DNA from: Rheinheimera sp. 1928-s
GTDB lineage: Bacteria; Pseudomonadota; Gammaproteobacteria; Enterobacterales; Alteromonadaceae
Direction of reading: 5' to 3'
DNA length: 64,000 nucleotides
Assembly (NCBI RefSeq): GCF_029269265.1
Contig: NZ_JARIXP010000001.1
Location: 464,591 to 528,590 of the forward strand
Shown piece by piece: positions 10,070 through 21,851 of this stretch (positions within the stretch are counted from its first letter, which is position 1; every line of letters starts with the position of its first letter). The notes beneath the pieces are model-generated. The model saw only the letters and a list, made by a program, of their open reading frames with translations, was not told the origin of the DNA and did not search any database. The translations under genes and the position numbers were made by a program.

Positions 10070-12232
10070 TTAATTCAGGTCTTGTGGGTCTACATCCAAC
10101 TGCCACTTTACCTTACGGCTTAGCGACCAGCGGCTGATTTCTGCTAATACTGAATCCAGACTTTGGTGTAATTGTTTTCTGTCTTTGGCAAAAAGCTGAA
10201 TTTGCCAACGGTATTTGCCCGCCTTACGTTCCATAGGGCAAGCCAGTGGCCCCAACAACTGCACTTGTGGCCATTCTTTATAATGGTCCGCCACTTTTTG
10301 CAGCCATTCTTTGCACAGTTCCAACTGATGCGCTTCCACTCTAAACAAAGCCAGGAACATAAAAGGTGGTAAAAAAGTTTGTTGCCGCTCTTTTAATGCG
10401 CTGCGGGCAAAAGAGGCGTAACCATTCTGGATCACATCCTGTAGCAGCGCATGACCCGGATAATGGGTTTGCAGTAAAACTTTGCCCGGCTGTGAGCCCC
10501 GCCCAGCCCGACCTGAGACTTGCGTTAACAATTGAGCTAACTGTTCAGGGGCTCTGAAATCATTGCTGTATAAAGCAGAGTCGACATCAATAATCACTAC
10601 TAAGCCAACATTCGGGAAATGATGGCCTTTGGCTAACATCTGGGTGCCTAAAATAAGCTGAGGCTCCCCTTGTAAGATCTGATCCAAGGCCTTCTGCAAA
10701 CTGCCTTTGCGTCTGATGCTGTCTCTGTCCAGTCGGGTGACTGTATGAGTTGGGAAAAGTTGTTGTAGCTGTTCTTCCAGCTGTTCAGTGCCCTGACCTA
10801 CAGGAGCCAACTGAGTACTGCCACAACCACCACATTGATGCGGCACCCCTTTAGTCGCACCACAATGGTGGCACACCAACTGACGACTTTGTTTATGAAA
10901 AGTAGTGAAAGCACTGCATCTGTGGCATTCGGTCATCCAGCCGCATTCATGGCATATCAGTGCTGGCGCAAAACCACGGCGATTTAAAAACAGCAGTACT
11001 TGCTGGCCGAGTTTTAAATGTTGTTCGATACGCTGGCGGGTTAAACCTGCCATGCCATGCATCATTTGCTGTTGTTTTAAATCCACCAGCTCGACTGTTG
11101 GCATCAACTGGCCAGCGGCGCGGTCAGGTAATTCCAGATGAGCAAAGCGGCCTTGTTGCACATTGGCCAGGCTTTCTAAGCTCGGCGTCGCTGAGCCTAA
11201 TAAAATAGGGCAGCCCTGAATCGAGGCGCGTTTAATCGCCAAATCCCGGGCGTGATACCGAAAGCCGTCCTGCTGCTTAAAGGAGTTGTCGTGCTCTTCA
11301 TCGATAATCAGCAAATCAAGCTTTAGGAAAGGCAAAAACAACGCAGAGCGGGTGCCAATCACTATAGCTAAATCACCAGTCTGGCAGCGTTGCCAGACGG
11401 TAAAACGCTCCAGGTCGGTCATATTGGAATGCCAGACGCCAACAGGCACGCCAAAACGTTGTTCAAATCGGGCTAAGGTTTGTGGTGTTAAACCAATTTC
11501 CGGCACCAACACCAGCACCTGGCCACCTGTTTTTACGACTGGGCTGATGGCCTGCAAATACACTTCGGTTTTGCCCGATCCTGTGACGCCTTCCAGTAAA
11601 AAACAACTGAAACTACCTAAAGCTTGTTGTACTGCTGTGACGGCCAAAGCCTGCGCAGGATTTAAGGGTAGGGACTTTTGTTGTTCATCAGCCGTCTGAT
11701 AAGGGCCGTATAAGAGCGGCGTAACATGAGCCCAACCTTGTTCAACAAAATACTGCAGCTCTTTGCGCTGAAAATGCTCCAGCAACTGGGTTTCGGTTTG
11801 AGGCTGTTGCAGCTGTTGCCATAAGGCCAGTCTTTTTTTCGCGGCTTTAAACTGCTGTTCTGTTAAATGCTGGCCTGCTTGGGTCAGGCTATAGCTAAGG
11901 CCTTTGACCGGATCGGCATTTTTACCATCGCGTAATAAAGCGGGCAGGGCACTGGTCAGTACATCGCCTAACGGATGATGGTAGTAATCTGCGGCAAAAC
12001 TTAATAACTGGCGAATAGGAGCTGCCAGTACCGGAGTTTGATCCAATACTTGGGTCACAGCTTTCAATTGAGCTGCGTCGTAGCTGTCGGTGGGGTTCAG
12101 TTGCCAGACAATACCTATCAGCTCGCGTTTACCAAAAGGCACTAAAACACGACAACCTGGGCTTACCTGTTCGTCACAAAGGTAATCAAAATGCACCCGA
12201 AGAGGAATGGGCAACGCTACCCGAATTACCAT
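10070..12232 (-). CDS. priA: PriA, primosomal replication restart helicase
   Basis: A 720-aa 3'-5' superfamily 2 helicase that recognises stalled forks and reloads DnaB. The N-terminal DNA-binding part (VALPIPLRVHFDYL, FAADYYHHPLGDVL) is followed by Walker A GVTGSGKTEVYL, the DEEH box (LLIIDEEHD), a zinc-binding region with eight Cys (CHECGW, CHRCSAF, CHHCGA, CGGCGS), and helicase motifs V-VI (GTQMLAKGHHFPNV, QVSGRAGRG). Family alignment favours the ATG at 12232; a TTG three codons upstream has a closer AGGTGG and cannot be excluded. It is divergent from rpmE, the common gammaproteobacterial arrangement. Confidence 0.96.
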   Translation of the reverse strand: MVIRVALPIPLRVHFDYLCDEQVSPGCRVLVPFGKRELIGIVWQLNPTDSYDAAQLKAVTQVLDQTPVLAAPIRQLLSFAADYYHHPLGDVLTSALPALLRDGKNADPVKGLSYSLTQAGQHLTEQQFKAAKKRLALWQQLQQPQTETQLLEHFQRKELQYFVEQGWAHVTPLLYGPYQTADEQQKSLPLNPAQALAVTAVQQALGSFSCFLLEGVTGSGKTEVYLQAISPVVKTGGQVLVLVPEIGLTPQTLARFEQRFGVPVGVWHSNMTDLERFTVWQRCQTGDLAIVIGTRSALFLPFLKLDLLIIDEEHDNSFKQQDGFRYHARDLAIKRASIQGCPILLGSATPSLESLANVQQGRFAHLELPDRAAGQLMPTVELVDLKQQQMMHGMAGLTRQRIEQHLKLGQQVLLFLNRRGFAPALICHECGWMTECHRCSAFTTFHKQSRQLVCHHCGATKGVPHQCGGCGSTQLAPVGQGTEQLEEQLQQLFPTHTVTRLDRDSIRRKGSLQKALDQILQGEPQLILGTQMLAKGHHFPNVGLVVIIDVDSALYSNDFRAPEQLAQLLTQVSGRAGRGSQPGKVLLQTHYPGHALLQDVIQNGYASFARSALKERQQTFLPPFMFLALFRVEAHQLELCKEWLQKVADHYKEWPQVQLLGPLACPMERKAGKYRWQIQLFAKDRKQLHQSLDSVLAEISRWSLSRKVKWQLDVDPQDLN

Positions 12233-12428: not shown

Positions 12429-12641
12429 ATGAAACCAAGTATCCACCCGGAATACAAAGAGATCACTGCAACTTGTACTTGCGGTAATGCTTTCAAAACT
12501 CACTCTACACTGTGCAAAGACATCCACTTGGACGTTTGCTCAGCTTGCCACCCATTCTATACTGGTAAGCAGAAAGTGTTAGACGTAGGCGGCCGTGTTG
12601 ACCGCTTCAAAAAACGTTTCGCAGTACTGGGCGCCAAGTAA
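12429..12641 (+). CDS. rpmE: Ribosomal protein L31 (bL31, zinc-binding form)
   Basis: A 70-aa ribosomal protein of the 50S subunit. It begins [12 protein letters not shown] and has the four zinc-ligand positions of the C+ form: C16 and C18 (CTCGN) and C37 and C40 ([13 protein letters not shown]). It therefore stores zinc and would be the form replaced by a zinc-free paralogue under zinc limitation in species that carry one. A GAGG ribosome site precedes the ATG, and a strong terminator follows 15 bases after the stop, so it is a single-gene unit divergent from priA. Confidence 0.97.
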
Positions 12642-12656
12642 TTTCAGGCATCAGTC

Positions 12657-12683
12657 AAAAAAGGCACCTTGGGTGCCTTTTTT
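12657..12683 (+). terminator. Intrinsic terminator of rpmE
   Basis: GGCACC (12663-12668), loop TTG and GGTGCC (12672-12677) form a GC-rich stem preceded by six A and followed by six T. It is a textbook Rho-independent terminator and works on both strands. Confidence 0.9.
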
Positions 12684-12832: not shown

Positions 12833-12963
12833 TTATTGCTCCTAACTCGAGTTTTAGAATCTGCCCACGCTGCGGCTTCAAGAACGACGTGTAACAAATC
12901 TATACTTTCATAATGCTGCCCATAACTATATATTAAACATATAGTTAACTTACGGCTGCGGTT

Positions 12964-15900
12964 ATGATTGGTACTTTCTTTTTTGGTGAGTGGCAGGTTG
13001 ATCCCAGTGCCAATACGCTGAGGCTTGGCAAACAGCTGATCCAGCTTGAACCTAAAGCTATGGATGTGCTGGTGTTGTTGTGTCAAAACGCCGGAGAAGT
13101 ACACAGCAGTGACGAGATTGTAAGCATTTGCTGGCCTCAGGCGGAAGTGGGCGATAACCCACTGCATAAAATTATCACGCAAATTCGTAAGGCCCTCGGC
13201 GACAGCGCTACCTCTCCTTCTTATATTGAAACCATCCGCAAACGCGGTTACCGCACTCTGGCTCAGGTCACTTTTCCGCTGGGGCAGGAAGAAAGCGCCA
13301 CACCCCAAAGTTGGCAAGGTGGTTCGCCTTTTCCTGGCTTGCAGGCTTACGATGCCCGTTATGCCAAAGTGTTTTTTGGCCGTGGCAGCCAAATTGATAC
13401 CTTATTGGAACGTATAGCGCAGCAAGTGCAGTACGGCAGAGCTTTTTGTTTAGTCTTAGGCCCAAGCGGCAGCGGTAAATCCTCGTTAATTAATGCTGGC
13501 GTTATGCCAAATCTGATGCAAAACAGTGGCTACAATGGCGTTAAGGTGGAGTCGTACAGCAGCCTGGATTTAGCTGACCTTACACCTGGTCAATTGCTGA
13601 TGCAGCTCGCCAGTGCTTTGCTCGACTGGGACCTCGCAGACCAACCCGTATTTGACGGCTGCAGTGCCGAACAACTGGCAGAAAAATTACAACATCAAAT
13701 GGACTGGGTGCTGCAAAGCTGCAAAAAGGCGCTGCAACACCAAAATGAAAGCAAATCCCGTTTTGCCATTTTTATCGACCGGCTTGAAGTGCTGTTGTCT
13801 TCGCCGCTGTTTAGTGAAGAAGAACGGCTGCTATTTATCGACCGGATGGAACAACTGGCTACTTCCGGTGTTGTCGTGGTATTAAGTGCTTGCCGTAACG
13901 AGTTTTACCCTTTACTGGTCACCTATCCCAGTTTGATGGCTGGCAAAGCCCGTGGTGCTCATTTTGACTTAGCGCCGCCCGGCAGAGCCGATTTGTTACA
14001 AATGATCCGCTTACCTGCGATAGCCGCCAATTTAAGTTGGGATTTAGACCCAAACACAGCAGTGCCGCTGGATGAGCTGTTGTGCAGCGAAGCGGCCAGC
14101 AACCCCGATGCTTTACCTATGCTGCAATACACTTTGCAGGAATTGTATTTACAGCGCAGCGACAGCAATCAGCTGTTGTTTTCTGTCTATAAAAACTTAG
14201 GCGGTATTGAAGGCGCTATAGGTAAAAATGCTGAGCAGGCCATAGCCCTGTTAAGCACCGCAGAAAAAGACAGTTTACCCAGAGTTTTATCTTTACTGGT
14301 GACTTTACGCGAAGACGAACAGTCCATCACCAGCCGTACAGCACTCTGGCAACAATTACAAAATGACGCTGAGCGAGCTTTGGTACAAGCTATGGTGGAG
14401 CATCGCTTATTTGTCTCCCACCTGCAAAATGCTGCGCCTTGTTTTAGTATTGCGCACGAAGCTTTATTAAGACGCTGGCCAAGAGCCACAGCCTGGATAG
14501 CAGAACATCATCAAAGTTTAAGTGTAAAAAGCCGCTTGCAGCATTTAACCAAACGCTGGCTGGCCGAAGATAAACACAGCGCTTATTTATTGGCAGACGG
14601 TAAACCTTTAGCCGAAGCGCAGCAACTGGCGCAAAACGGCTTTTTTACCCTGGATGCTAACGAAAAAGACTTTATTCAGGCCTCAGGCAAAAGATCCAAA
14701 TTAGTACGCACCAGCAGGCGTTTAACCTTTGTTTTACTCTGTGTGCTGACTTTTACCGCAGTGCTAATGAGCTTTCGAAGTTTTGAGGCGGAAAAACAAG
14801 CACAGCAAAAACGTTTAGCCGCCGAAAGTTTATTAGGTTTTATGGTGGGTGATTTTGCCGACAAATTACGCAGCATAGGCCGGATGGATTTACTCGACGG
14901 TATTAGCAATAAAGCGCTGGAGTATTTCAGCGACTTTTCTGATGCGGAAAAAGACCAATACCTAAGCGCCCAGGCCCGTTTGCAACATGGCCAAACGCTG
15001 GAAGCTATGGGCGAAGTGGCTTATTCACGTGACAAAATTGATGAAGCCAAAACTGCTTTATTAGCAGCCAGAGAAAAACTGGTGCCAGTGCTTGCTGAGC
15101 AGCCAGATAATTTAGAGCTGCTAAAAACCTTAGGCGCCAACGCCTTTTGGTTAGGGCAAATTCAGTACGATGCCAAAAACTGGCTGGCTGCTAAACCAGA
15201 ACTTGAGCTGTATTACAGCTATAGTCAGGCCATGTACCGGGTGGCACCTGAAAGCTTCGACGCCTTGATGGAATTATCCTACGCCACCAACTCTTTAGGC
15301 TCTTTGGCGATGAAATTACAAGAGTTTGAACAAGCCACAGCCTTTTTTAACGAATCTTTGACTCTGAAATTGTTAGCGCAAGCTAAGGAACCCGCTAATA
15401 CAACTCTGATTGGCGACATAGCAGATACCCGCTCTTGGTTAGCCAGTGCAGTGCTCGCTCAAGGTGATATTTGGCAAGCTATTGAAGTTCACAAAAAGAT
15501 ACAAAGTGAATTTCAACGATTTAGCAAAACAAAAGAGCCTGATGGTTATTTGTTAGATAAAGTATTTGGCAGTTATAGAAATTTATCTGCTTTGCTTGGA
15601 TATCAAGGGCTTAAACACGAAGCTTTTGAACTGAATTTTTTAGCTCAACAATTGCTCGAACAAGCGTTACAACTCGATCCAGAAAATGAAGTTTGGCATA
15701 TCGATTTATTTAATATCAAATTACAGTTAATGCGGTTAAATGCTGAGCTAAAAGACCCAAGGATCAATTACACACCTGAACTGTTAAAAACACAGTTTGA
15801 AAGTAACAGAAAGCGTTTGTCTGAAACGCGTTATCTTAATTTATTCAGGATCTGGTATATCGAATCAGTGCGTTATTATCAGATGACAGCACAATGGGAC

Positions 15901-16224
15901 AAAAGTGCAGAATTATTACAACAAGCTTTACCTTTTTATCGAGAGAATTTCAGGCTGAATATGGATAGTAGAGAGTGGCGGTATTACTTAGCCTATATTG
16001 AACTAGTAAACGCCAACCAATTGAAATTTGAACTGAAACTTGAGCAAAGCCAGCAAGCTTGCCAACATGTAAAAGAGGTACTGGCTCCGATGAAAGATCA
16101 AGTTAGAACTCCGCAATATATTCACTCTTATGCTACGGCTTTAAGTTGTTTGGGGGAGCTAGACCAAAATGTAACTCTACGCCAACACATAGAGCAAAGC
16201 GGTTTAGTGATTGAAAAACTTTAG
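12964..16224 (+). CDS. CadC-like winged-helix / STAND NTPase / TM / TPR regulator
   Basis: A 1086-aa multidomain protein. Residues about 7-105 are an OmpR/CadC-type winged helix (RLGKQLIQLEPKAMDVL; IRKRGYRTLA). Residues 121-140 (SPFPGLQAY...VFFGR) open an nSTAND1-type NTPase with Walker A GPSGSGKSS (166-174) and a Walker B-like FAIFIDRLEVL (D272). A single TM helix lies at about 582-603, and the C-terminal 480 residues are TPR-like helices, most simply placed in the periplasm as in CadC. It would be a membrane-tethered transcription regulator whose NTPase acts as a switch (inference). Thirty bases downstream lies a small gene, then a secreted paralogue of it. Base composition drops sharply near 15480, inside the TPR region. 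Specific ligand and target are unknown. Confidence 0.85.
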   Translation: MIGTFFFGEWQVDPSANTLRLGKQLIQLEPKAMDVLVLLCQNAGEVHSSDEIVSICWPQAEVGDNPLHKIITQIRKALGDSATSPSYIETIRKRGYRTLAQVTFPLGQEESATPQSWQGGSPFPGLQAYDARYAKVFFGRGSQIDTLLERIAQQVQYGRAFCLVLGPSGSGKSSLINAGVMPNLMQNSGYNGVKVESYSSLDLADLTPGQLLMQLASALLDWDLADQPVFDGCSAEQLAEKLQHQMDWVLQSCKKALQHQNESKSRFAIFIDRLEVLLSSPLFSEEERLLFIDRMEQLATSGVVVVLSACRNEFYPLLVTYPSLMAGKARGAHFDLAPPGRADLLQMIRLPAIAANLSWDLDPNTAVPLDELLCSEAASNPDALPMLQYTLQELYLQRSDSNQLLFSVYKNLGGIEGAIGKNAEQAIALLSTAEKDSLPRVLSLLVTLREDEQSITSRTALWQQLQNDAERALVQAMVEHRLFVSHLQNAAPCFSIAHEALLRRWPRATAWIAEHHQSLSVKSRLQHLTKRWLAEDKHSAYLLADGKPLAEAQQLAQNGFFTLDANEKDFIQASGKRSKLVRTSRRLTFVLLCVLTFTAVLMSFRSFEAEKQAQQKRLAAESLLGFMVGDFADKLRSIGRMDLLDGISNKALEYFSDFSDAEKDQYLSAQARLQHGQTLEAMGEVAYSRDKIDEAKTALLAAREKLVPVLAEQPDNLELLKTLGANAFWLGQIQYDAKNWLAAKPELELYYSYSQAMYRVAPESFDALMELSYATNSLGSLAMKLQEFEQATAFFNESLTLKLLAQAKEPANTTLIGDIADTRSWLASAVLAQGDIWQAIEVHKKIQSEFQRFSKTKEPDGYLLDKVFGSYRNLSALLGYQGLKHEAFELNFLAQQLLEQALQLDPENEVWHIDLFNIKLQLMRLNAELKDPRINYTPELLKTQFESNRKRLSETRYLNLFRIWYIESVRYYQMTAQWDKSAELLQQALPFYRENFRLNMDSREWRYYLAYIELVNANQLKFELKLEQSQQACQHVKEVLAPMKDQVRTPQYIHSYATALSCLGELDQNVTLRQHIEQSGLVIEKL

Positions 16225-16254
16225 TCTATGATTTATTAACAATAAGGAGAACTT

Positions 16255-16623
16255 ATGAGTACGGTAGATACCACGATTGACGTAAAAATCACGTTAGATG
16301 AAAACAATATTCCACAATTCAGTTACAGCCAAAATGGTGAGATTAGCGATGGTAGCGTCGTAGTGGACTGCGGCCAGGATATTATTTACCAACTGGTTGA
16401 ATCACCAGGTTACGCTTTTACTGGTGCAGGTTTTTTAACTCCTTTTAACAAAGTTATTGACTCTGTTTCCGTTAGTGGCGATGGCCAGCAACTTATACTG
16501 GTCGATGAAGACTCTGTTAGTGGTGTAACTAGTTTCCAGTTGATTCTGAGCTGTGCAACAAGTGGTTTGCTATTGCTAAGCCCTGATCCGCAAATTGTAA
16601 ACAAAGGTGCCGATCCAGAGTGA
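16255..16623 (+). CDS. Small protein with SPDPQ-VNKG tail, predicted cytoplasmic
   Basis: A 122-aa protein with no signal peptide or TM helix, starting at an ATG with a strong AAGGAG seven bases upstream. It is all but one domain: ITLDENNIPQFSYSQNG, IIYQLVE, FTGAGF, VSVSGDGQQL, and the C-terminal SPDPQIVNKG. The same domain forms the C-terminal half of the secreted protein encoded at 16842-17597, about half identical by eye. The predicted fold is beta-rich. The name 'DP-EP family protein' used in public annotations may apply, because the tail reads DP...EP in the paralogue, but I cannot confirm that. It lies 30 bases after the STAND regulator and is probably co-transcribed with it. Function unknown. 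Confidence 0.75.
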   Translation: MSTVDTTIDVKITLDENNIPQFSYSQNGEISDGSVVVDCGQDIIYQLVESPGYAFTGAGFLTPFNKVIDSVSVSGDGQQLILVDEDSVSGVTSFQLILSCATSGLLLLSPDPQIVNKGADPE

Positions 16624-16697
16624 TTGAAAGTTAGTTGCTAACTGTCATTCTCAGTATAGAATTCGCTTTCTTGCCGATACATATAGACACTTGCAGC

Positions 16698-16720
16698 AAA
16701 GCCCTTATTAGGGCTTTTTT
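16698..16720 (+). terminator. Terminator after the first SPDPQ gene
   Basis: AAAGCCC-TTATTA-GGGCTTTTTT is a good Rho-independent terminator. The same 23-base unit recurs after the paralogous gene at 17688-17710, including the loop, which suggests that gene and terminator were duplicated together. Confidence 0.85.
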
Positions 16721-16841
16721 CTTCAGTTTAAAAAAGCCACGACTCAAGTTGTCCCCAATTTTCTCTTGTTTATTCGTTGTCCCGCTATTAGCATGTTGCT
16801 GATTGTTCCCATCTTAAAGCTTTTAATCAAAAGGATTTACT

Positions 16842-17597
16842 GTGAAAAAACTGTCTTTGCTTTTTACTGCTTTGTTAGCTGCCTCTCCATTCTTGAGCCA
16901 GGCGGCTACCCAACAAGAGATTGATCGTGCCCTTGCACCTGTGAAAAATAAATCAGATCTGCAACTGGTGCTCAGTTCTGTTTCAGCTTTAGATGCGCTT
17001 GAAGAACATTTGCCTGAATTTTTGGATAGCGTGAAATTCCCTAAAAAGGGGCAGCAGCCAAAATTTGATAAAGAGCTGCTGGAAACAAACTTATCCGCTA
17101 CTGAAATTTATAAAATTCTGGCGTTATTCGGCCAGCAAAGCAGCATAGGCCAGTATCAGGGCGCTGCTATTGTCACTGACACAGACAGATTGTTATTAAC
17201 TGGCTCAACCTTGCCATTTTGTGACGCCGCCAGCCCTATCGAGCTGAGAGTTATGTTAGATAAAAATAAACAGGCGCAATTTAGCTACGCGCAAAGCGGT
17301 ACCTTTTGTGACGGTAACGTCGAGCTGACTGAAAATACCACTATTACCTATCAGCTGGTGCCACATAAAAAATCGCCTAAAGGATTACGTATAACAGGTG
17401 CTGGTTTTACCAACGCTTTTGATGGCCATATCGAAAAAGTGACGGTAAGTAGCGACGGCCAAAGCATTCAGCTGGAGAACAATATTGAAAACTCCGGTGT
17501 CAGCAAATACCAGTTTATCCTTGAGTCGGAAGAAAATGATTTGCTGCTGGTAAGCCCCGATCCGCAAGTTGTAAACAAAGGCACTGAGCCAGCATAG
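16842..17597 (+). CDS. Secreted protein with C-terminal SPDPQ-VNKG domain
   Basis: A 251-aa protein with a GTG start preceded by AAAAGGA. Residues 1-21 are a Sec signal peptide (MKKLSLLFTALLAASPFLSQA), so the product should be periplasmic or outer-membrane associated. Residues about 22-120 are a helical, charged region not found in the upstream paralogue. Residues about 130-251 repeat the 122-aa protein: LDKNKQAQFSYAQSG, TYQLV, ITGAGF, VTVSSDGQ, SGV..YQF and SPDPQVVNKG. Cys127 and Cys156 occur only here and could form a disulphide. Together with the STAND regulator, whose TPR region is probably periplasmic, it could be the sensed partner or the output (speculative). No function is known to me. 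Confidence 0.72.
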   Translation: MKKLSLLFTALLAASPFLSQAATQQEIDRALAPVKNKSDLQLVLSSVSALDALEEHLPEFLDSVKFPKKGQQPKFDKELLETNLSATEIYKILALFGQQSSIGQYQGAAIVTDTDRLLLTGSTLPFCDAASPIELRVMLDKNKQAQFSYAQSGTFCDGNVELTENTTITYQLVPHKKSPKGLRITGAGFTNAFDGHIEKVTVSSDGQSIQLENNIENSGVSKYQFILESEENDLLLVSPDPQVVNKGTEPA

Positions 17598-17687
17598 TTA
17601 AAACTGAATTTTTAACTTCTGTTTGCAGCTTTGGAATCCGCTCAAGGAAGATCGTTTACGTTATATATTTAACAAGACCATTTTATT

Positions 17688-17710
17688 AAAGCCCTTATTA
17701 GGGCTTTTTT
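17688..17710 (+). terminator. Terminator after the secreted SPDPQ protein
   Basis: AAAGCCC-TTATTA-GGGCTTTTTT repeats the terminator at 16698-16720 base for base in stem and loop. It ends the accessory module before the GGDEF gene. Confidence 0.85.
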
Positions 17711-17800: not shown

Positions 17801-18892
17801 ATGCTCAGTAAACGCAGTAATGCGTCGGTACCAGGGCTTATGGAGCACAGACTTATGACAGGTTCAACACAAAGTAAAAGATTATATTTAACCTCTGCAG
17901 CGGTAAGTGAAGCGAATGGCAGCCCAGCTGAGCTGAATCCTTCACTTTATAACCGCAACGATGTAAGCCGGATAGATTTTTCTGGCGCTGGTGGTTATGC
18001 GGTGCCTCACCTTGAGTCTTTACCTGCACTAATTGAGTATTTGTCTGAAGCTGTTTTGGTGGTGAACTCCAGTGGCAAGATTGTTTGTATTAACAGTAAA
18101 GCAGCGCAGTTTTTGGGTCATACCCAAGGGGCGTTACGTGGTCATTGCTGGCCGGACTTTTTAGTCAAACGTTATCAGCTGAGTTATCAGAACATGGTGG
18201 ATATGGGCCGTCGAGGTTTATTGTCACAGCAGCATAACCTGGCTGAAATGGCCATTATTTGTGCCAATGGTGATGTAAAAGATATCGAGCTGTCCCTGAC
18301 CTATTTACCTTCAGATGAGCCGTTGCTGGTGATTGTGATGCGTGATCTGACTTCCCACAAAGCCGAATGTTACAAGTTGCATATGCTGGCCTGCACTGAC
18401 CCTTTAACGGCATTGGCCAACAGACGCCATTTTGACGAGATGTTGCAGAAGTACTGGGATGAGTGCAATAAAACACAAAGCCCTGTCAGTGTGCTGATTG
18501 TTGACGTAGATTATTTCAAACAGTTTAACGATCAATATGGCCATATTCAGGGTGATGAATGTTTGCGTCGCATTGCAGCTGCTATCTCACTGGCGGTTCC
18601 CCGTGGTCAGGGCTTAGCGGCCCGTTACGGTGGCGAAGAATTTGCGCTTATTCTGCCTTATCACGACGAAGCTATGGCAAAAGCTGTGGCCTTAAGAGTG
18701 CAGCATTATGTGCGTCAGCTGAATTTCTGTGAACAAGGCCTGCCGGAAGATTTATGCGTTAGCGTCAGCCAGGGCATTGCCAGTGAAATCAACGGCCAGT
18801 TCCGCACCCCTTTTGCCATGTTATGTGCGGCTGATACAGCTTTATATCGTGCTAAATCAGAAGGCCGGGATTGCATCAGTAGTTGCTGCTAA
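17801..18892 (+). CDS. PAS-GGDEF diguanylate cyclase
   Basis: Up to 363 aa, cytoplasmic. A PAS domain occupies about residues 75-190 (VVNSSGKIVCINSKAAQFLG; LLVIVMRDLTSHK), followed by a GGDEF domain (about 195-360) that begins CTDPLTALANRRHFDE. The signature is GGEEF (277-281), an accepted active form, and the metal/GTP residues D and N of VDVDYFKQFNDQYGH are intact, so it should make c-di-GMP. No RxxD inhibitory site precedes the signature. An ATG at 17855 has a better-spaced GGAG than the first ATG at 17801, so the true start may be 18 residues further in. It is the only canonical cyclase among the five c-di-GMP proteins here. Confidence 0.92.
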   Translation: MLSKRSNASVPGLMEHRLMTGSTQSKRLYLTSAAVSEANGSPAELNPSLYNRNDVSRIDFSGAGGYAVPHLESLPALIEYLSEAVLVVNSSGKIVCINSKAAQFLGHTQGALRGHCWPDFLVKRYQLSYQNMVDMGRRGLLSQQHNLAEMAIICANGDVKDIELSLTYLPSDEPLLVIVMRDLTSHKAECYKLHMLACTDPLTALANRRHFDEMLQKYWDECNKTQSPVSVLIVDVDYFKQFNDQYGHIQGDECLRRIAAAISLAVPRGQGLAARYGGEEFALILPYHDEAMAKAVALRVQHYVRQLNFCEQGLPEDLCVSVSQGIASEINGQFRTPFAMLCAADTALYRAKSEGRDCISSCC

Positions 18893-21338: not shown

Positions 21339-21851
21339 TCAGGGCCTGTGTTTTTGTAGTTTACGTTGCAAGGTACGTCTGTGCATCGCCAGTGCTTTGG
21401 CGGTCTGGGATATATTGCCCTGATGTTGTTCCAGAACCCGTTGAATATGCTCCCATTCCAGCTGATCTGTCGATAAAACATCGGCTTCATTTGCTGCTGT
21501 TTGGCTAACTTGACCACTTAACGCCTGAGTTAAAGTTGCAAAATCCACAGGTTTGGTCAGGTAATCATCGGCTCCGGCTTTTACCGCTTGCACTGCTGTG
21601 GCTATGCTGGCGTAGCCGGTCAGTAATACGATGCGACATTTGGGCAGTTGTTGTCGTAGCGGCTGTACATAATCCAGACCAGACACAGCACCAAAACGTA
21701 AATCCAGCAGATAACAGTCGGCTTGCTCTGCGACCAGTTCATTTGGGCTTATCGCTTGGTTGTAGCTTTGTACCTGATGGCCCAAAGCTTCCAGTCGGCG
21801 GCACAAAGTGCGGGTTAAGATGACATCATCATCCAGCACTACCAGTTTCAT
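21339..21851 (-). CDS. RegA/PrrA/ActR-family response regulator
   Basis: A 170-aa regulator. The receiver domain (1-110) has the acidic pocket D7-D9, phospho-acceptor D50 (CYLLDLRF), T78 and K100 (YLTKP). A Fis-type helix-turn-helix occupies about 130-167 (HQGNISQTAKALAMHRRTLQRKLQK). This short REC-Fis architecture is that of the RegA/PrrA family of redox-responsive global regulators. Its ATG overlaps the kinase stop codon (ATGA), so the two are translationally coupled. Targets cannot be told from the window. Confidence 0.9.
   Translation of the reverse strand: MKLVVLDDDVILTRTLCRRLEALGHQVQSYNQAISPNELVAEQADCYLLDLRFGAVSGLDYVQPLRQQLPKCRIVLLTGYASIATAVQAVKAGADDYLTKPVDFATLTQALSGQVSQTAANEADVLSTDQLEWEHIQRVLEQHQGNISQTAKALAMHRRTLQRKLQKHRP

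What the first reader, a model, noticed from the sequence alone, without database searches (positions are those of the whole stretch)
12964..17710. STAND regulator with two paralogous small proteins, one cytoplasmic and one secreted
A 1086-aa protein joins a CadC-like DNA-binding domain, an nSTAND1-type NTPase, one TM helix and a probably periplasmic TPR region. It is followed by a 122-aa protein and a 251-aa secreted protein with the same domain. A membrane-spanning switch that binds DNA inside and could bind a ligand outside, next to the same domain made in both compartments, suggests a sensing circuit or conflict system. Architecture is seen; the circuit is inference.
Basis: partly seen in the sequence, partly recalled or inferred. 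Interest (0 to 1): 0.75.

Follow-up and report, generated by a model that had tools for sequence, protein, structure and literature searches.

The report
STAND sensor, self-cleaving partner, cyclase module
A membrane-spanning DNA-binding switch protein is encoded next to a small protein of a self-cleaving family with no known role and, in most genomes, an enzyme of the cyclic-di-GMP signalling type, which gives that orphan family constant genetic partners and a testable role in signalling.

Summary
Window 12964-16224 encodes a 1086-aa wHTH-nSTAND1-TM-TPR protein; 16255-16623 and 16842-17597 encode two Pfam DP-EP (PF08985) proteins, one without and one with a signal peptide. DP-EP is the family of Shewanella SO1698, whose crystal structures show cleavage at an Asp-Pro bond. 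The pair was constant in our samples: 35 of 35 genomes with a PF08985 match among 394 of the order, and 78 of 80 STAND relatives from a second collection, the other two cut off at contig ends. The secreted copy is a minority feature (8 of 80). The TPR part is probably periplasmic: conserved TM helix and a conserved cysteine pair. DP-EP divergence tends to follow the TPR part, cyclase divergence the NTPase part. A perfect palindrome at the regulator's promoter occurs once in the genome. Best reading: a one-component membrane signalling module with c-di-GMP output. A conflict system has no support. Both window DP-EP proteins lack Asp37, needed for cleavage in SO1698.

The parts
12924..12946 (.). 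Perfect palindrome AACTATAT-N7-ATATAGTT, 17 bases before the regulator's ATG, overlapping a promoter-like -10 (TTCATA-16-TATATT, 12907-12934): candidate operator for autoregulation
   Evidence: Only perfect copy in the genome; two more places with 2 mismatches, the level of the reversed control; the 23-mer is identical in the window and 7 of the 8 nearest loci (L075-L081), and L074 differs at one outer base. Promoter-like sites are no more frequent here than in shuffles
12964..16224 (+). 1086-aa regulator: OmpR/CadC-type winged helix (25-97), nSTAND1 NTPase (122-538), one TM helix (about 587-604), TPR-like repeat region (about 640-1080) with two conserved cysteines (1033, 1062)
16255..16623 (+). 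122-aa DP-EP protein without signal peptide; tail S-P-D-P-Q-I-V-N; Ser at the place of SO1698 Asp37, Ser at Lys98
16698..16720 (+). Intrinsic-terminator-like site after the first DP-EP gene
16842..17597 (+). 251-aa secreted DP-EP paralogue: signal peptide, about 100-residue helical domain without Pfam match, C-terminal DP-EP domain (133-246); Asn at Asp37, Lys kept at Lys98, cysteine pair C127/C156
17688..17710 (+). Terminator-like site after the secreted DP-EP gene, identical over 23 bases to the one at 16698
17801..18892 (+). 363-aa PAS-type sensor (PF24820) plus GGDEF diguanylate cyclase, GGEEF active site intact, no RxxD inhibitory site; conserved third member of the module

Best explanation
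It is a one-component transmembrane signalling module. The regulator sits in the inner membrane with its winged helix and STAND NTPase in the cytoplasm and a disulfide-bonded TPR superhelix in the periplasm. DP-EP is its dedicated protein partner, probably made from the same transcript (tight gap) and recognised through the TPR region and/or the conserved C-terminal tail S-x-D-P-[QE]-[VI]-x-N; in SO1698-like members the Asp-Pro bond of that tail breaks by itself, so cleavage can work as a timer or state switch. On ligand or partner binding the NTPase changes state, and the winged helix changes transcription of its own operon at the single palindrome. The adjacent diguanylate cyclase turns the event into c-di-GMP. 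Shown here: architecture, constant pairing, conserved cyclase, single palindrome, a tendency of DP-EP to co-vary with the TPR part. Inferred: topology, physical binding, direction of regulation, c-di-GMP output. In the secreted-copy genomes the periplasmic DP-EP could be the direct ligand.
For: Constant pair: 35 of 35 genomes, 78 of 78 complete loci in genome contigs, and still paired at 39-40% STAND identity, in Niveispirillum (alphaproteobacterium, L154) and in G657 (L175). Cyclase: same-strand GGDEF within 4.5 kb downstream in 72 of 80 named loci and 28 of 34 fetched DP-EP loci of the order set, 3 more of these convergent beyond DP-EP, none of 6 STAND relatives without DP-EP; upstream baseline 4 of 121, all on the opposite strand. 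PF24820 plus GGDEF in 24 of 24 aligned members, GGEEF in 24 of 24 and RxxD in 0 of 24 (RxxD by eye). In 3 of 3 module genomes the best match of the cyclase spans the PAS part and lies at the module; in 8 of 8 genomes without the module the best match covers the GGDEF part only. Topology: TM in 31 of 31 (by eye), exactly two cysteines after the TM in 28 of 31, C1033 and C1062 each in 30 of 31 and in 40 of 40 of a second, overlapping set. Co-variation (68 loci): DP-EP with TPR 701-900 r 0.83, with STAND 0.78, with wHTH 0.47; cyclase with STAND 0.84, with TPR 0.74. Palindrome once per genome.
Against: The core DP-EP has no export signal while the TPR it co-varies with is predicted outside, so their meeting is unexplained in most genomes. 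The bootstrap interval for DP-EP (TPR minus STAND) is -0.004 to 0.103 and just includes zero; in the Rheinheimera group, the window's own, TPR (0.64) is no better than STAND (0.63), below wHTH (0.71) and cyclase (0.83); distances share one phylogeny, short parts give noisy trees, and neighbourhood on the DNA could link DP-EP with the TPR end. The cyclase is missing downstream in 5 of 80 named loci that are not cut off, in L061, L065 and L067, and within 4.5 kb in L064. Weaker matches spanning the PAS part (26-33% identity) exist in several genomes without the module. A terminator and own promoter probably separate the cyclase from the operon, and nothing shows that the regulator controls it. 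The palindrome was found only among the nearest Rheinheimera. Asp37 is kept in only 23 of 79 first DP-EP proteins.
Confidence: 0.55

Rival explanations
1. DP-EP is a cytoplasmic guard-type partner of the STAND core: the NTPase watches the integrity or cleavage state of DP-EP inside the cell, and the TPR part is only an oligomerisation or anchoring element.
For: The first DP-EP has no signal peptide and cysteine numbers without pairing (0-4 over 79 sequences); STAND proteins elsewhere act as sensors (general knowledge); the pair is constant; in the Rheinheimera group DP-EP follows STAND as well as TPR.
Against: DP-EP divergence follows the TPR part better than the STAND part inside Shewanella (0.79 against 0.49) and in the other genera (0.95 against 0.64); a secreted DP-EP copy exists in several genomes.
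Confidence: 0.2
2. Clip-and-link chemistry: DP-EP is a self-activating cross-linker, as in the FrpC self-processing module, that fixes its Asp116 to lysines of a target, and the STAND protein only regulates its synthesis.
For: Asp116 in 78 and Pro117 in 79 of 79; wild-type SO1698 chains in the PDB end at Asp116; Asp-Pro cleavage with Asp-Lys linkage is established for FrpC (PMC7078468, abstract and passages); a Lys98-Asp116 link in SO1698 is recalled from Osipiuk 2012, which I could not read.
Against: Lys98 is kept in only 31 of 79 first DP-EP proteins and the deposited K98A chain also ends at Asp116; Asp37 is not kept in 56 of 79.
Confidence: 0.1
3. Conflict or anti-phage system.
For: STAND NTPases are common in such systems (general knowledge); distribution is patchy (35 of 394 genomes), including absence in two same-genus genomes with different content at the site.
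Against: PADLOC hits cover only the P-loop; the N-terminal output domain is of a DNA-binding type and the linked enzyme is of a second-messenger type; Pfam shows no toxin, nuclease or pore domain in the four window proteins; the 122-aa protein has no match in the phage or plasmid collections (one diverged pair on a 1-Mb Niveispirillum plasmid, L154, was missed by that search), and no STAND relative in viral contigs.
Confidence: 0.07
4. The gene order reflects shared history only: regulator and DP-EP form an operon, and the cyclase is a passenger with no functional link.
For: The DP-EP to cyclase gap is 72-341 bases in 42 of 72 loci and larger in the rest, with room for its own promoter; the cyclase is missing in the most distant pairs (L153, L154, L175).
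Against: All other neighbour families differ between loci (at most 13 of 121) while the cyclase stays, also when inverted (L051, L055, L057), and in 8 of 8 genomes without the module its best match covers the GGDEF part only.
Confidence: 0.08

Closest known systems
SO1698 of Shewanella oneidensis (DP-EP, formerly DUF1888; PDB 3n55, 3njf-3njn)
   Different: Window copies have Ser or Asn at Asp37 (D37A is full-length in the PDB); the second copy is exported and carries an extra helical domain
CadC/ToxR-type one-component membrane regulators
   Same: N-terminal OmpR-type winged helix, one TM helix, probable periplasmic sensor; best NCBIfam hit CadC, 63.8 bits over residues 5-105
   Different: A 400-residue STAND NTPase lies between DNA-binding domain and membrane; the sensor is TPR-like; far below the CadC cut-off of 400 bits. 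The layout of CadC and ToxR is recalled
nSTAND1 proteins of putative conflict systems diversified by retroelements (PMC10907252, seen in a search listing only)
   Same: nSTAND1 is named in that paper; a resemblance recalled, not tested
   Different: The window protein is membrane-spanning and DNA-binding, with no effector domain by Pfam; retroelements were not searched for
RcbA/RcbB of Vibrio vulnificus (PMC12282931, abstract and outline seen)
   Same: Operon in which a TPR protein controls a diguanylate cyclase
   Different: There the cyclase itself has an N-terminal TPR domain; the abstract names no STAND, wHTH or DP-EP part
FrpC self-processing module (PMC7078468, abstract and passages)
   Same: Autocatalytic Asp-Pro cleavage
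   Different: RTX exoprotein domain, calcium-triggered; no relation to DP-EP was tested; the lysine is not conserved in DP-EP (31 of 79)
MakD of Vibrio cholerae (6tct) and PixA inclusion-body proteins (4lzk)
   Different: About 6-10% identity, may be only a shared fold

Membership tests
DP-EP (PF08985) | Score over the Pfam gathering cut-off | tested here: met
   82.5 and 70.7 bits against 25
DP-EP (PF08985) | SO1698 beta-sandwich fold | tested here: met
   [not shown]
DP-EP (PF08985) | Asp-Pro bond with Ser two residues before | tested here: met
   Present in both window copies; S114 78, D116 78, P117 79 of 79 first copies
Self-cleaving DP-EP (SO1698 type) | Asp37, needed for cleavage in SO1698 | tested here: not met
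   Ser in the 122-aa copy, Asn in the secreted copy; so they are DP-EP members, but not shown to be self-cleaving ones
Self-cleaving DP-EP (SO1698 type) | Cleavage of the protein itself | not testable with these tools
   Needs purified protein
nSTAND1 NTPase | Profile match with Walker A and B | tested here: met
   E 5e-84; 40 of 40 homologues; G166, G171, K172, D272, E275 invariant in 40
CadC/ToxR-type one-component regulator | N-terminal OmpR-type winged helix | tested here: met
   Trans_reg_C E 3e-17; 40 of 40 homologues
CadC/ToxR-type one-component regulator | Single TM helix and periplasmic sensor | tested here: inconclusive
   Conserved TM and cysteine pair speak for it; no fusion data; model is weak at the TM (pLDDT under 50 at 595-610)
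CadC equivalog (NF007540) | Score over the NCBIfam cut-off | tested here: not met
   63.8 against 400 bits
Diguanylate cyclase | GGDEF domain with intact GG[DE]EF | tested here: met
   E 2e-42, GGEEF; 24 of 24 module members
Diguanylate cyclase | c-di-GMP synthesis | not testable with these tools
   Needs enzyme assay
Known anti-phage defence system | Match to a PADLOC system protein over most of its length | tested here: not met
   For the regulator and the two DP-EP proteins only mad3/mad8 over about 30 residues at the P-loop; one library of 2023

The most novel reading that the evidence does not exclude
DP-EP is a released protein or tail-peptide signal read from outside: cytoplasmic DP-EP freed from lysed or leaking kin cells (or the secreted copy) binds the periplasmic TPR superhelix of the STAND regulator, as short peptides bind TPR receptors of the RRNPP family (recalled), and the cell answers with c-di-GMP. 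The self-breaking Asp-Pro bond sets free or exposes the conserved P-[QE]-[VI]-x-N tail. This would be a Gram-negative protein-signal system with a STAND receptor, and would explain why a leaderless protein co-varies with an extracytoplasmic sensor.
Probability: 0.12. Interest if true: 0.87.

Novelty: new variant of a known kind. Interest (0 to 1): 0.62.

Why it matters
DP-EP (DUF1888) has had crystal structures since 2010 and a described self-cleavage, but no biological role that I found in the held papers. Showing that it is encoded, in every genome where I looked at its surroundings, directly behind one type of STAND transmembrane regulator, and mostly with the same diguanylate cyclase, turns that into a direct test: delete or mutate one of three neighbouring genes in a laboratory Shewanella and measure operon expression and c-di-GMP. 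It also shows a STAND NTPase as the switch between a probable periplasmic sensor and a DNA-binding domain, a layout that classical one-component regulators such as CadC and ToxR (recalled) do not have.

Tried and rejected
Conflict or defence system: PADLOC, phages and plasmids with the 122-aa protein and viral contigs with the STAND alignment gave no support; a viral-contig search with DP-EP itself did not run. Mobile element: apart from one diverged pair on a 1-Mb Niveispirillum plasmid (L154, which one search had missed), no mobile copy was seen; the site in two same-genus genomes lacks the module, so the site is variable, but insertion machinery was not searched for.

Isopeptide cross-linking as the general function: Lys98 is kept in 31 of 79 and the K98A chain also ends at Asp116. 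TPR part as cytoplasmic: rejected on TM and cysteine pattern, not proven. Operator shared by other clades: a scan for dyads with 8-base arms in 96 upstream regions found this palindrome only in the nearest Rheinheimera. Fold of the helical N-terminal domain of the secreted copy: the structure comparison lists were filled by the DP-EP domain, so nothing can be said about it. Searches for print on the trio or its parts: (open-access PMC only) found no paper on the combination; Osipiuk 2012 (J Biol Chem 287:19452), the main SO1698 paper, is not held, so whether it discusses gene neighbours is unknown to me; its Lys98-Asp116 link is recalled, its citation seen as reference 24 of PMC11655445 (passages).


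Full report
WHAT IS THERE. The window is 464591-528590 of contig C1 of a 4.64-Mb genome; the closest named match to its regulator is Rheinheimera mesophila (95% over residues 1-596 on a truncated contig, L109). The 1086-aa ORF at 12964-16224 has an OmpR/CadC-type winged helix, an nSTAND1 NTPase and, after one hydrophobic helix, a long helical repeat region. The ORFs at 16255-16623 and 16842-17597 are both members of Pfam DP-EP, 46% identical to each other; only the second has a signal peptide, followed by a helical domain of about 100 residues without a Pfam match.

THE PAIR IS CONSTANT. PF08985 was found in 35 of 394 genomes of the order, 40 matches. I fetched the 34 other genomes' surroundings; in 35 of 35 genomes, own included, a full-length STAND relative lies directly upstream on the same strand. 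From the other side, a scan of the genome-contig collection with a STAND alignment gave 272 relatives, of which the tool kept the best 80, so the others were not seen: 78 have a complete STAND ORF and all 78 have a DP-EP ORF directly downstream; L092 and L109 end at a contig edge. The two sets share species, so they are not independent counts. Genera include Rheinheimera, Arsukibacterium, Alishewanella, Shewanella, Pseudoalteromonas, Colwellia, Paraglaciecola and Agaribacter. At 39-40% STAND identity the pair persists (L154, Niveispirillum; L175), and in L065 and L067 at lower identity still, while seven other relatives at 25-35% (L068-L073, L176) have no DP-EP by my profile. In a draw of 398 genomes of the phylum 10 had a STAND match at E 1e-90 or better; of these 8 have DP-EP and two (G072, G537) do not. 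PF08985 itself matched 7 of 398 there, all in the order. It did not list G184 or G657, in which my own profile finds DP-EP, so the Pfam counts are lower bounds. The STAND to DP-EP gap lies between -74 and 102 bases in 76 of 79 loci and is 211, 247 and 462 in three (mechanical starts, so overlaps may be smaller).

A THIRD MEMBER. Clustering of neighbours over 123 loci (121 with a STAND) showed one further constant gene, the PAS-GGDEF protein at 17801-18892 (104 loci by BLAST cluster); every other neighbour family occurs in at most 13 loci. A GGDEF gene lies downstream on the same strand within 4.5 kb in 72 of 80 named loci (3 of the 8 misses, L095, L124 and L146, are cut off; L118, L132, L137, L153, L154 really lack it). 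In the order set 28 of 34 DP-EP loci have it, 3 more (L051, L055, L057) have it in convergent orientation beyond DP-EP, L064 only at 5.1 kb, L061 and L065 not at all; L067 also lacks it; none of the 6 STAND relatives without DP-EP (L068-L073) has it. On the upstream side the count is 4 of 121, all on the opposite strand; 5 of the 121 loci have less than 4.5 kb upstream. With a stricter test on the PAS part alone the number is 83 of 121. All 24 aligned members have PF24820 plus GGDEF, intact GGEEF, and no RxxD site by eye. In 11 genomes compared, the 3 with the module have their best match at the module, from residue 72 or earlier (100%, 40% and 35% identity; E 3e-249, 3e-63, 3e-55); in the 8 without it the best match covers the GGDEF part only (E 3e-37 to 3e-31), though weaker matches spanning the PAS part (26-33% identity) occur in several. 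The genomes carry 38-73 GGDEF matches each, so chance adjacency would be rare.

TOPOLOGY. The TM helix with basic residues before it is seen by eye in 31 of 31 homologues; after it there are exactly two cysteines in 28 of 31, with C1033 and C1062 each in 30 of 31; in a second alignment, overlapping in species, both are invariant in 40 of 40. That is the pattern of a periplasmic disulfide; the part before the TM has 3-12 cysteines. The secreted DP-EP copies share a cysteine pair (C127/C156 in the window protein) in 7 of 7, with one further cysteine in the mature part of L035; the first DP-EP copies have 0, 1, 2, 3 or 4 cysteines in 24, 18, 17, 19 and 1 of 79. So the same domain does appear to be made for both compartments where the second copy exists, but that copy, whole or in pieces, was found in only 8 of 80 named loci (window, L077, L078, L079, L091, L108, L119, L120) and in L035, L047, L048 of the other set; L050 and L057 have a second, differently built DP-EP-like ORF with a hydrophobic N-terminus, that of L057 a weak match.

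THE DP-EP DOMAIN. PDB titles and chain lengths show that SO1698 chains of wild type, K98A, Y26F, P115A and Q118A end at Asp116, while D37A, S114A, D116A and P117A are full-length. I take this as cleaved and uncleaved. In 79 first DP-EP proteins S114 is kept in 78, D116 in 78, P117 in 79, N121 in 77, but Asp37 in 23 and Lys98 in 31 (one alignment; in an earlier set of 41 sequences, both copies, D116 and P117 41, S114 39, K98 13, D37 10). The window copies have Ser and Asn at Asp37. The Asp-Pro tail is therefore conserved more strictly than the residue that drives cleavage in SO1698. Either another residue takes over, or the tail has a second use such as partner binding. The fold of the secreted copy's domain is that of SO1698, with MakD and PixA next.

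WHO TALKS TO WHOM. On 68 dereplicated loci, tree distances of DP-EP correlate best with TPR residues 801-900 (0.84) and 701-900 (0.83), then STAND (0.78), C-terminus (0.75) and wHTH (0.47); the cyclase correlates best with STAND (0.84), less with TPR (0.74). Bootstrap of the difference TPR minus STAND: DP-EP 0.047 (-0.004 to 0.103; 3.4% at or below zero), cyclase -0.091 (-0.135 to -0.047). Within Shewanella DP-EP follows TPR 0.79 against STAND 0.49, in other genera 0.95 against 0.64; in the Rheinheimera group 0.64 against 0.63, with 0.78 for 801-900, 0.82 for the C-terminus, but also 0.71 for wHTH and 0.83 for the cyclase. This is suggestive, not proof: distances share history, short parts give noisy trees, and the gene is adjacent on the DNA to the TPR end. 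Against linkage alone speaks that the cyclase on its other side follows DP-EP less well over all loci (0.63), though not in the Rheinheimera group.

REGULATION. AACTATAT-N7-ATATAGTT at 12924-12946 overlaps a promoter-like -10; promoter-like sites were no more frequent here than in shuffles. It is unique in the genome as a perfect match; two 2-mismatch places equal the control. The 23-mer is identical in 7 of the 8 nearest loci and differs at one outer base in L074. The simplest reading is autoregulation. Terminator-like sites after the first and second DP-EP genes are identical over 23 bases, so the second copy may have arisen by tandem duplication with its terminator, and regulator plus first DP-EP probably form one transcription unit separate from the cyclase.

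NEIGHBOURHOOD. In two same-genus genomes (G052, G330) the order is kept up to the terminator after the 70-aa gene at 12429-12641 (matches end at 12683) and the module is not in the 14 kb fetched; in G052 similarity resumes at 21339, in G330 it does not within the fetched stretch; neither genome has a PF08985 match. The module is an accessory at a variable site.

VERDICT. Observation confirmed, interpretation partly supported: a sensing circuit, yes as best reading; a conflict system, no support. New variant of a known kind: one-component membrane regulation with a STAND switch, a constant DP-EP partner and a dedicated cyclase. Function of every part is inferred from sequence; nothing was assayed.

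Noticed in passing
window 16698-16720 and 17688-17710: Two terminator-like sites identical over 23 bases, one after each DP-EP gene; none in 100 shuffles.
   Followed up: partly
L078 9865-10623, L091 9730-10059, L119 9956-10486, L048 2594-3124: The secreted DP-EP copy appears split or truncated in several genomes, so it may be dispensable or decaying; assembly error not excluded.
   Followed up: no
L176 6383-7078 and 13500-14168 (also near 12022): A distant STAND relative (34%) without DP-EP is flanked by several ORFs of the type 'MxxYxLxLxID', two of them 231 and 222 aa and without Pfam match: perhaps another partner family.
   Followed up: partly
L068-L071: STAND relatives of 971-982 aa with winged helix (32-35% identity) have neither DP-EP nor cyclase downstream.
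   Followed up: partly
P0003 residues 22-128 (window 16905-17225): About 100-residue helical domain of the secreted copies, conserved in Rheinheimera and Shewanella, without Pfam match; not searched alone for fold.
   Followed up: partly
[not shown]
   Followed up: no
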